NCBI GenBank assembly: GCA_023382455.1
Contig: JAHDVX010000031.1
Location: 1-34,040 of the forward strand
Direction of reading: 5' to 3'
Source of the DNA: Flavobacteriales bacterium
GTDB lineage: Bacteria > Bacteroidota > Bacteroidia > Flavobacteriales_F > PHOS-HE28
Length of the DNA: 34,040 bases
Position numbers and translations under genes: made by a program. Numbering within the stretch: the stretch's first letter is position 1; every line of letters starts with the position of its first letter. Under the pieces are notes generated by a model that had not been told where the DNA came from, did not search any database, and saw nothing but the letters and a program-made list of their open reading frames with translations. Positions 11,877 through 32,891 of the stretch are shown here, one piece after another.

Positions 11877-12533
11877 TCAGAAGCGGCCTACCTTCAAGGT
11901 GACCGCGCCGCTGAAGCCGCGCAGTGCGTCCTTCGGTGTTGCCGGCAGGTCAATGTCCGAGGTGAAGCGGTAGGAGGCGCCAACAGCGAGGCGCACGATG
12001 CGGACCAGGCTCAATTCCACCTCCACGCCCGGTTCGAGCACAAAGAAGGCTTGGCCACGATCGAACCAATCCACTCGGTGGGTGGTGTCGGCCCCAGGTT
12101 GCCAAGGCGTGAAGGTCTGGTAGGCGCATACGCCAGCACCGATCAGCACCGGCAAGGTCACGTGCACCGGGCTGCGGTAGCCGATGACGGGTTCCAGCAA
12201 CAGACCTCCGTAGCCCATGCGGAGTTGGCTGGTATGGCGCACGGTCTCGCCCTGTTCCACCAGGTAGGCATCGTACCCTTTGTTCGGTACATCCGTTACC
12301 AGCCCGTAGCCGGCGATGCCCAAGGTGAACCGGTGGTCCACCAGCCAACCGCCCTTGATGCCGGTCAGCAGCGATGGTTTGCCCATTACCTCGGTCAGGG
12401 CCACGGACGGCGCCCCCCAGCCACCATTATCATGTTCGCTGCCGGAACCGAACAGGGTCCTGGGTTCATTGGGGTCTTGCGCCAGTGTGATCGTGGCCGG
12501 CAGGATCAAGAGGAGAAGAAGGAGTGTACGCAT
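11877..12533 (-). CDS. Exported hypothetical protein, probable outer-membrane beta-barrel
   Basis: 218 residues. Strong signal peptide (MRTLLLLLLILPATITLA). The body alternates hydrophobic and polar residues with many aromatic/Gly turns (GIKGGWLVDHRFTLGIAGYG, LRMGYGGLLLEPVIGYRSP) and ends in SGAVTLKVGRF, a C-terminal Phe typical of outer-membrane barrels. The family is not recognised. The open frame extends far upstream across the divergent ArsR gene, but only the ATG at 12533 gives a signal peptide. Confidence 0.75.
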   Translation of the reverse strand: MRTLLLLLLILPATITLAQDPNEPRTLFGSGSEHDNGGWGAPSVALTEVMGKPSLLTGIKGGWLVDHRFTLGIAGYGLVTDVPNKGYDAYLVEQGETVRHTSQLRMGYGGLLLEPVIGYRSPVHVTLPVLIGAGVCAYQTFTPWQPGADTTHRVDWFDRGQAFFVLEPGVEVELSLVRIVRLAVGASYRFTSDIDLPATPKDALRGFSGAVTLKVGRF

Positions 12534-12579
12534 GGGTCGTTCAGGTTTGTTGCCCTGATGACAATGCACAAGCTCGTTA

Positions 12580-12594
12580 CCCCTATTCCAGGGG
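12580..12594. other. Hairpin in the ArsR divergent region
   Basis: CCCCT / AGGGG with a 5-nt loop, followed by AATTTTTTG. It looks like an intrinsic terminator but no plus-strand gene ends here, so an operator for the divergent exported protein is an alternative. Confidence 0.35.
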
Positions 12595-12599
12595 AATTT

Positions 12600-12631
12600 T
12601 TTGTATTTAACCAATAGGTTAACTACATTTG
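12600..12631 (+). promoter_or_regulatory. ArsR operon promoter with embedded operator
   Basis: -33 box TTTG (12600-12603), 20-nt spacer, -7 box TACATTTG (12624-12631): a full Bacteroidota promoter. The inverted repeat TTAACC-AATA-GGTTAA (12607-12622) fills the spacer, so a bound dimer would block polymerase. The downstream ArsR-family protein is the expected repressor. The ATG is 16 nt after the -7 box. Confidence 0.75.
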
Positions 12632-12647
12632 ACCCAAGAACCCCGCC

Positions 12648-13025
12648 ATGGACCGCCTCTCGCTCACCTTCTCCGCACTGGCCGACCCCACGCGCCGGGC
12701 CATCCTGGCGCGGCTTTCCAGCGGCCCGGCCTCGGTGAACGAGTTGGCCGCGCCCTTCCGCATGAGCCTGCCGGCGGTAAGCAAGCACTTGAAGGTGTTG
12801 GAGCGCGCGCAGCTGATCGCCCGGGGCAAGGAGGCCCAATGGCGGCCGTGCGCCATCAAGGCGGAACCGCTGAAAGAAGCCACCGATTGGATGGAGCAGT
12901 ACCGCCAGTTCTGGGAGGCCCGCTTCGATCGGCTGGAGGAGTACCTGAAGGAATTGCAAATGCAAGAGAAACCAGCGGCCAAGAAGGTCGCATCCAAACG
13001 CAGGAAACATGGAAACAGCAAATAG
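12648..13025 (+). CDS. ArsR-family winged-helix repressor
   Basis: 125 residues. ADPTRRAILARLSSGPASVN opens the winged helix; the recognition helix is in LPAVSKHLKVLERAQLI (41-57), followed by a wing. It lacks the ELCVCDL metal site of classic ArsR and has only one Cys, so it is probably not a metal sensor. This matches the ArsR subtype paired with SRPBCC/AHSA1 genes. The C-terminus is Lys/Arg-rich. Its 3' end overlaps the first SRPBCC gene by 17 nt. It probably represses its own operon through the inverted repeat in its promoter. Confidence 0.92.
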   Translation: MDRLSLTFSALADPTRRAILARLSSGPASVNELAAPFRMSLPAVSKHLKVLERAQLIARGKEAQWRPCAIKAEPLKEATDWMEQYRQFWEARFDRLEEYLKELQMQEKPAAKKVASKRRKHGNSK

Positions 13026-32318: not shown

Positions 32319-32349
32319 CAGGGCAGCCCATCGCCCCTTTCAGCATGAA

Positions 32350-32607
32350 TCACCGATAGGCTTGCTTTCGATCGGAGACCTTCTCCACTCGCACCAGTTT
32401 GATCTGATCTCCGATAAAGTAGATGACCCGGTAGTTCCCTATGCGGATCCGCCAAAGGTCCTTGTGTCCAGTCAGTTTCTTGCAGCCTGGCGGTCGTGGA
32501 TCTTCAGCCAAGCGGCCCACTGCCTAACCCACACGCAGCGCGATGGGCACCGGAAGCTTGTTCAACTCCCTGACCGCACTTCGTAGCCATTCGATCCGAT
32601 AGCTCAC
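32350..32607 (-). pseudogene. RelE-type toxin gene broken by an in-frame amber codon
   Basis: Starting at GTG 32607, which overlaps the antitoxin stop as GTGA, the frame reads YRIEWLRSAVRELNKLPVPI then ALRVG, TAG (32526-32524), then AVGRLAEDPRPPGCKKLTGH, KDLWRIRIGNYRVIYFIGD and a normal end in DRKQAYR. The full length would be 85 codons, right for RelE. Everything except codon 28 matches a RelE toxin, including WRIRIGNYRVIY. One C-to-T change (CAG to TAG) explains the break. The toxin is probably inactive, or made only by reinitiation (a GTG lies two codons after the stop) without its first helix. Confidence 0.85.
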
Positions 32608-32816
32608 TTCCGATCAGCCCGTTTGCGAAGATCCCGCATCACCTTCTCGTGTGGCACGCTCGGCTGACCACGGCGTTCTACCGCGATCAAACCGTCCAAG
32701 TATTCTTCCACGGCATCCGGTTCCTTTACCAAGGTGGCCAGATCGATCTGGACGTAGCGACGATTCTCCGTTTCATCGGTGACCAGTTTGATCCCCTTGA
32801 CGTGCTGCTTTCCCAT
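32604..32816 (-). CDS. RelB-like antitoxin, intact
   Basis: 70 residues: KGIKLVTDETENRRYVQIDL, then LATLVKEPDAVEEYLDGLIA, and a basic tail (EKVMRDLRKRADRK). It is placed before the RelE remnant with a 4-nt overlap, as in RelBE operons. The start at 32816 follows a perfect -7 box by 4 nt. It is intact although its toxin is broken, so it may persist as a free antitoxin or repressor. Confidence 0.75.
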   Translation of the reverse strand: MGKQHVKGIKLVTDETENRRYVQIDLATLVKEPDAVEEYLDGLIAVERRGQPSVPHEKVMRDLRKRADRK

Positions 32817-32820
32817 ATTT

Positions 32821-32828
32821 CAAAGGTA
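32821..32828 (-). promoter_or_regulatory. -7 box of RelB-like gene (TACCTTTG)
   Basis: Exact TAnnTTTG match ending 4 nt before the ATG at 32816. Confidence 0.6.
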
Positions 32829-32891
32829 TGCAGAGGGTTGTAGAAACGCCCGATCGTGATAAAGATCCCTTTTCTCCCGGCCCAGTGCCGC

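What the first reader, a model, noticed from the sequence alone, without database searches (positions are those of the whole stretch)
32350..32816. RelBE module with intact antitoxin and amber-broken toxin
One C-to-T change at codon 28 stops an otherwise perfect RelE frame from GTG 32607 to 32350. The antitoxin and its promoter are intact. It is a snapshot of toxin decay, or a case where suppression or reinitiation gives little toxin. Gene callers will miss this toxin.
Basis: seen in the sequence. Interest (0 to 1): 0.5.

Follow-up and report, generated by a model that had tools for sequence, protein, structure and literature searches.

The report
Decayed RelE toxin beside intact antitoxin
A bacterial self-poisoning gene pair in which the poison gene has been cut short by one stop codon while its antidote gene is still whole: an ordinary, fairly recent case of gene decay of a well-known kind.

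Summary
On the minus strand a 70-codon antitoxin gene (32816-32604) overlaps a RelE-family toxin frame (GTG 32607 to TGA 32350) with one in-frame TAG at codon 28 (32526-32524). Pfam, sequence and fold evidence agree on RelE, and nine aligned genus relatives are 66-88% identical without a stop. One detail is not supported: none of the nine has CAG at codon 28 (eight Glu, one Ala), so "one C-to-T change" is not what comparison suggests. Best reading: recent loss of the toxin in a RelBE islet that the sister species lacks at this site. Toxin dN/dS to the nearest relative is about 0.04. Of 13 close modules, four have a broken toxin, by different lesions, and 12 have an open antitoxin. Genus-wide, toxins are not significantly more interrupted than antitoxins once the two rows that prompted the search are dropped (p 0.10). 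Suppression is unlikely: TAG is a normal stop, RF1 is intact, 0 of 39 tRNAs found are CUA. TA decay by nonsense mutation is in print. Base 32526 could not be checked against reads.

The parts
32604..32816 (-). antitoxin gene, 70 aa, ATG to TGA, RelB-like by position and weak similarity
   Evidence: relatives lie beside RelE genes in the genus; a close relative scores weakly with NCBIfam RelB model NF050103, 18.8 bits, cut-off 50
32350..32607 (-). RelE-family toxin frame, GTG to TGA, interrupted by one TAG (pseudogene)
   Evidence: fold of its G005 relative matches solved RelE structures; relatives' profile matches RelE chains
32524..32526 (-). in-frame TAG at codon 28, in helix alpha-2 of the fold predicted for a relative
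   Evidence: nine aligned relatives have Glu (8) or Ala (1) here
32350..32520 (-). 56-aa open remainder from GTG 32520, two codons after the TAG; possible but unproven reinitiation product
   Evidence: Pfam PF05016 28.3 bits over profile positions 39-89
32821..32828 (-). TACCTTTG, Bacteroidota-type -7 promoter element (name recalled), 4 bases before the antitoxin ATG
   Evidence: TAnnTTTG in 12 of 13 close modules
32324..32890 (.). 567-bp segment carrying the module, where the sister species G034 has 36 bp
   Evidence: blastn blocks on both sides, 90% and 94% identical
32320..32337 (-). weak terminator-like hairpin after the toxin
   Evidence: 1 found, 0.5 expected by shuffling, so not significant

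Best explanation
This is a chromosomal RelBE-type type II toxin-antitoxin islet, lying between a divergent pair of genes (exodeoxyribonuclease III and a Tll0287-family gene), whose toxin was recently inactivated by a nonsense mutation. Translation of the toxin stops after 27 residues, so no working RelE is made; the antitoxin and its promoter motif remain and can still be expressed. Shown: the frame, the stop, the open antitoxin, the relatives without the stop, the empty site in the sister species. Inferred: that the stop abolishes toxicity, that the antitoxin is still made, and that the loss was neutral or mildly favoured because it ends the cost of a selfish module.
For: The TAG is the only internal stop and there is no indel against the intact relatives. 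Toxin dN/dS to G005 is 0.043, about as between intact pairs (0.040-0.075 for G005 against G033a, G033b and G020), so the frame was under selection until recently (dS near saturation). Of the 13 best rows (36 rows in all), the toxin is broken in 4: nonsense here; a 60-nt in-frame deletion in G003; a ~165-nt repeated palindromic insertion in G042; truncation after about 17 codons in G017 (cause not examined). The antitoxin is open in 12 of 13. The module is absent at this site in the sister species. TAG terminates normally: 57 of 260 sampled ORFs; RF1 full length; no CUA anticodon among 39 tRNAs.
Against: The same genome has a second PF05016 toxin with a single TAG, 2 of 4 in all. No reads were available, so a base error is not excluded. 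'Toxins break more than antitoxins' is not established: 12 of 108 toxin rows against 1 of 56 antitoxin rows gives p 0.037, but without the own-genome rows that prompted the queries it is 10 of 106 against 1 of 54, p 0.10, and p 0.17 without one row (G016) whose flagged stop I did not see; the RelE/RelB pair alone gives p 0.62, and Y1 transposases show 6 of 113. The antitoxin diverges faster on this branch in some comparisons (13 against 3 unique residues versus G005, outgroup G002, p 0.02; p 0.02-1.0 over eight, uncorrected), which toxin loss alone does not explain.
Confidence: 0.85

Rival explanations
1. Assembly or sequencing error, or a minority allele taken into the consensus: the toxin is really intact in the population.
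For: A single wrong base could be enough; the frame is otherwise under strong constraint. The contig belongs to a draft genome of 51 contigs.
Against: Genome estimated 99.95% complete and 0.08% contaminated, though that says little about single bases. Relatives lack a whole toxin by other, larger lesions, so loss is plausible by itself.
Confidence: 0.09
2. Leaky amber codon: low-level read-through or suppression makes a little full-length toxin, and the TAG is a tuning device.
For: Two of four PF05016 toxins in this genome carry a single TAG; 9 of 12 rows flagged with stops in two toxin searches are TAG; low dN/dS.
Against: TAG excess is not significant (p 0.08; 5 of 9 flagged rows listed in the wider family search, p 0.75). 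The stops I looked at lie at different codons. TAG is a regular stop, RF1 is intact, no CUA tRNA among 39 found; tRNA-Asp and tRNA-Ile are not among the 39, so the set is incomplete.
Confidence: 0.03
3. Termination-reinitiation: ribosomes stop at TAG and restart at GTG 32520, making a 56-residue C-terminal RelE piece that binds the antitoxin or mRNA.
For: GTG lies two codons after the TAG in frame; 17 of the 20 invariant columns of 18 relatives lie in the piece.
Against: The position is an ordinary valine in 8 of the 9 nearest relatives, so the GTG is no new start; the piece would lack beta-1, alpha-1 and most of alpha-2.
Confidence: 0.03

Closest known systems
RelBE / RelE family of type II toxin-antitoxin modules
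   Same: Antitoxin-first operon with overlapping genes, RelE fold; best solved relatives are RelE of Thermus thermophilus (2khe), Pyrococcus horikoshii (1wmi) and M. tuberculosis RelBE (3g5o, 9g12)
   Different: Toxin interrupted at codon 28, so the module as read cannot be a working RelBE pair
Decay of chromosomal TA systems in E. coli, e.g. ccdO157 (Mine et al. 2009, cited in PMC7167474 and PMC2654758, passages seen; the paper itself is not held)
   Same: Chromosomal islet degenerating by nonsense mutation or deletion, as the reviews put it
   Different: Different toxin family and a distant bacterial group; here only one genome per species is held, so polymorphism within the species is unknown
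Orphan antitoxins (Klebsiella survey PMC7192599; E. coli survey PMC10790755; passages seen)
   Same: Antitoxin without a working partner at its locus
   Different: Here the toxin remnant is still nearly whole

Membership tests
RelE toxin (RelE/ParE superfamily, PF05016) | Profile match over the whole domain | tested here: met
   37.6 bits against cut-off 23, profile 1-89 of 89, with X at the stop
RelE toxin (RelE/ParE superfamily, PF05016) | RelE fold | tested here: met
   Tested on the intact G005 relative, not on the broken protein: model pLDDT 90.2; the first 9 of 14 Foldseek hits at E<=0.001 are RelE chains
NCBIfam RelE_StbE (TIGR02385) | Score above curated cut-off | tested here: not met
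   No match at E 0.1 for the window protein or the G005 relative; three more distant genus members score 20.0-26.8, below 27.9
RelE toxin (RelE/ParE superfamily, PF05016) | Ribosome-dependent mRNA cleavage | not testable with these tools
   needs an assay
RelBE operon | Antitoxin gene directly upstream, co-directional, overlapping or nearly so | tested here: met
   GTGA overlap at 32607-32604; same arrangement in relatives
RelBE operon | RelB antitoxin family | tested here: inconclusive
   No Pfam, NCBIfam or PADLOC hit at E 0.1 for the window antitoxin; sub-threshold RelB hit for a close relative
RelBE operon | Intact toxin gene | tested here: not met
   TAG at codon 28
Suppressed or recoded amber gene | CUA tRNA, absent or altered RF1, or TAG rare as a stop | tested here: not met
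   0 of 39 tRNAs found are CUA (set incomplete); RF1 full length, 483 bits; TAG ends 57 of 260 sampled ORFs

The most novel reading that the evidence does not exclude
In this genus amber codons in RelE/ParE toxins are a tolerated or even selected 'quiet' state: low-level UAG read-through leaves a trace of toxin, or a reversible off state, while the antitoxin persists; the two amber-bearing modules of this genome would be an example.
Probability: 0.03. Interest if true: 0.6.

Novelty: new member of a known kind. Interest (0 to 1): 0.17.

Why it matters
Taken alone it is an ordinary pseudogene. Its modest value is as one of several toxin lesions of different kinds in the same small family within one genus (nonsense, in-frame deletion, repeat insertion, truncation), with the antitoxin open in 12 of 13. 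That makes the family a usable test bed for how TA modules die and whether left-over antitoxins are kept by selection; the numbers here are too small to decide that.

Tried and rejected
Recoding or suppression of TAG: judged unlikely on stop usage, RF1 and tRNA content. A programmed amber at a fixed site: rejected, since the stops I looked at in other toxins lie at different codons, and four of four close relatives of the second own-genome case have Tyr (TAC) there. TAG enrichment among broken toxins: not significant. A general excess of stops in toxins over antitoxins: first seemed present (p 0.037), but not significant without the own-genome rows (p 0.10). A genome-wide screen for interrupted ORFs in the 434-kb sample was uninformative, because antisense frames look coding at 62.6% GC (137 candidates). 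Its stop-usage count (253 TGA, 111 TAG, 64 TAA) has the same flaw; the greedy non-overlapping count is used instead, and its ORFs were not checked as genes either. One search used unoriented loci and was discarded; one search repeats it with strands. In one search the G032 row was read on the wrong strand and the G016 row was skipped; both were redone, where the G016 alignment showed no stop. A target-site duplication at the edges of the 567-bp segment was looked for by eye and not seen. Plasmid relatives were found only below 60% identity (17 records), so no recent plasmid source was found in that collection.

Literature searched: (listings); passages seen in PMC7192599, PMC10790755, PMC7167474, PMC2654758, PMC10305079; outline and abstract of PMC2680264. 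I make no claim that this locus is unpublished.

Full report
What is there. On the minus strand the window holds an open 70-codon gene, 32816-32604, whose stop overlaps a GTG start at 32607 (GTGA). From that GTG a frame runs to TGA at 32350 and is open except for one TAG at codon 28, 32526-32524. Read with X at the stop, the frame matches PF05016 (ParE/RelE toxin) over residues 5-84 at 37.6 bits, cut-off 23. The antitoxin matches no curated family by itself, but relatives in the genus sit directly upstream of RelE genes, and one of them gives a weak RelB hit below cut-off.

It is RelE. In 45 genomes of the genus the read-through query finds 44 matches in 24 genomes; the nearest are 88% (G005) and 86% (G006) identical over all 85 residues without a stop. 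A profile of 18 relatives without stops (A1) finds solved RelE structures (best 2khe, E 8.3e-12). The AlphaFold model of the G005 protein (pLDDT 90.2; strand 5-7, helices 9-16 and 20-32, strands 51-56, 59-65, 69-76) matches RelE chains first in Foldseek. NCBIfam RelE_StbE is not reached: no hit for the window protein, and 20.0-26.8 bits against 27.9 for three more distant relatives.

The mutation. Codon 28 is GAA in five, GAG in three and GCA in one of nine aligned sequences from eight relatives. The stop falls in helix alpha-2 of the G005 model.

How recent. Toxin dN/dS between this genome and G005 is 0.043 (45.5 synonymous and 17.5 nonsynonymous differences), no higher than between intact pairs. 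dS is near saturation, so this is rough, but it suggests that most of the divergence happened under constraint and that the stop is recent on that scale. Relative-rate counts on the toxin show no significant acceleration in this lineage (p 0.38-1.0 over eight comparisons). The antitoxin looks faster on this branch in some comparisons (p 0.02-1.0 over eight, uncorrected); I have no explanation for that.

The site. In the sister species G034 (XthA 96% identical; the next relatives 81% or less) both flanks align at 90% and 94%, but where this genome has 567 bp with the module (32890-32324), G034 has 36 bp. XthA was found in 40 of 45 genomes; of the 30 loci fetched, with up to 1.5 kb on each side, only this genome has the antitoxin-toxin pair directly beside xthA. 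One other, G020, has its toxin 1.2 kb upstream of xthA on the same strand with another open frame between, which could be coincidence or a trace of an older shared position. So gain here and loss in G034 cannot be told apart. TAnnTTTG stands 4 bases before the antitoxin ATG, and such a motif is found upstream in 12 of 13 close modules; it is recalled as the Bacteroidota -7 element. The sigma-70 scan is empty.

Other broken modules. Of the 13 best antitoxin rows (36 in all), the toxin is broken in four: nonsense (this genome), a 60-nt in-frame deletion (G003), an insertion (G042) and truncation after about 17 codons (G017, whose antitoxin also has a TAA). The G042 insertion is about 165 nt, folds into a long hairpin, has 27-nt arms at 85%, and has relatives at 18 distinct places each in G043 and G006 (the 31 matches reported for G043 include both strands of the palindrome), so it is a repeated palindromic element. 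Stops flagged inside matches over the genus: 3 of 44 for this toxin, 9 of 64 for the second own-genome toxin, 1 of 36 and 0 of 20 for the two antitoxins, 6 of 113 for Y1 transposases, 0 of 40 for XthA. I looked at all 12 toxin rows; the stop was seen in 11 and not in G016, and in G002 it lies at the very end of the match. Pooled toxins against antitoxins give p 0.037, but p 0.10 without the own-genome rows that prompted the queries, and 0.17 without G016 as well; the RelE/RelB pair alone gives 0.62. So a general 'toxin first' bias is suggested by this family, not shown. In 80 loci from genome contigs, 3 of 85 tblastn alignments carry an in-frame stop.

Suppression. The genome has a second PF05016 toxin with a single TAG (C17, codon 8, GTGA overlap with an open antitoxin), so 2 of 4. 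Its four closest relatives have Tyr (TAC) there. The wider family search lists nine flagged rows, 5 TAG, 2 TAA, 2 TGA, out of 199 matches of which not all are listed; these were not all inspected. In the two toxin searches the flagged count is 9 TAG, 2 TAA, 1 TGA; against the one-step nonsense expectation of 14 in 29 from the G005 toxin this gives p 0.08, and 5 of 9 gives p 0.75. TAG ends 57 of 260 greedy non-overlapping ORFs of at least 150 codons in a 434-kb sample. RF1 is full length (483 bits). None of the 39 tRNAs found has anticodon CUA, but tRNA-Asp and tRNA-Ile are not among them, so the set is incomplete. Suppression is therefore unlikely, not excluded.

Precedent. Reviews state that chromosomal TA systems of E. 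coli decay by deletion or nonsense mutations, naming ccdO157 (passages of PMC7167474; PMC2654758), and surveys find orphan antitoxins abundant in Klebsiella and E. coli (passages of PMC7192599 and PMC10790755). This locus is a new instance of that. Read support for base 32526, toxicity, and expression of the antitoxin remain untested. On rechecking, the confidence of the main reading went from 0.86 to 0.85, because the genus-wide toxin-against-antitoxin contrast weakened.

Noticed in passing
L001:1269-1791 (G000 contig C17, about 12213-12735): Second toxin-antitoxin pair of the same genome with one in-frame TAG (codon 8) in a ParE-like toxin and an open antitoxin with GTGA overlap.
   Followed up: yes
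L135:1733-1897 (G042); relatives at 18 distinct places each in G043 and G006: About 165-nt palindromic repeat (27-nt arms) inserted in a RelE gene. Looks like a MITE or REPIN-type element (names recalled).
   Followed up: partly
L142:1307-1501 (G003): In-frame 60-nt deletion of toxin codons about 29-48 beside an open antitoxin; would give a short protein without the conserved CKKL stretch.
   Followed up: partly
G033 contig C2:166004-169662: Two open copies of the RelBE module about 3.2 kb apart, with a Y1 transposase match 0.4 kb after the second.
   Followed up: no
G000 contig C12:5124-5838 (L046): Two equal-scoring Y1-transposase-like matches exactly 520 bp apart, and the same ORF pieces twice: probable tandem duplication.
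   Followed up: no
window 32604-32816: Antitoxin diverges faster on this branch than the toxin in some relative-rate comparisons.
   Followed up: partly
L167:1-2259 (G020): In G020 the toxin lies 1.2 kb upstream of xthA on the same strand, with another open frame between.
   Followed up: partly
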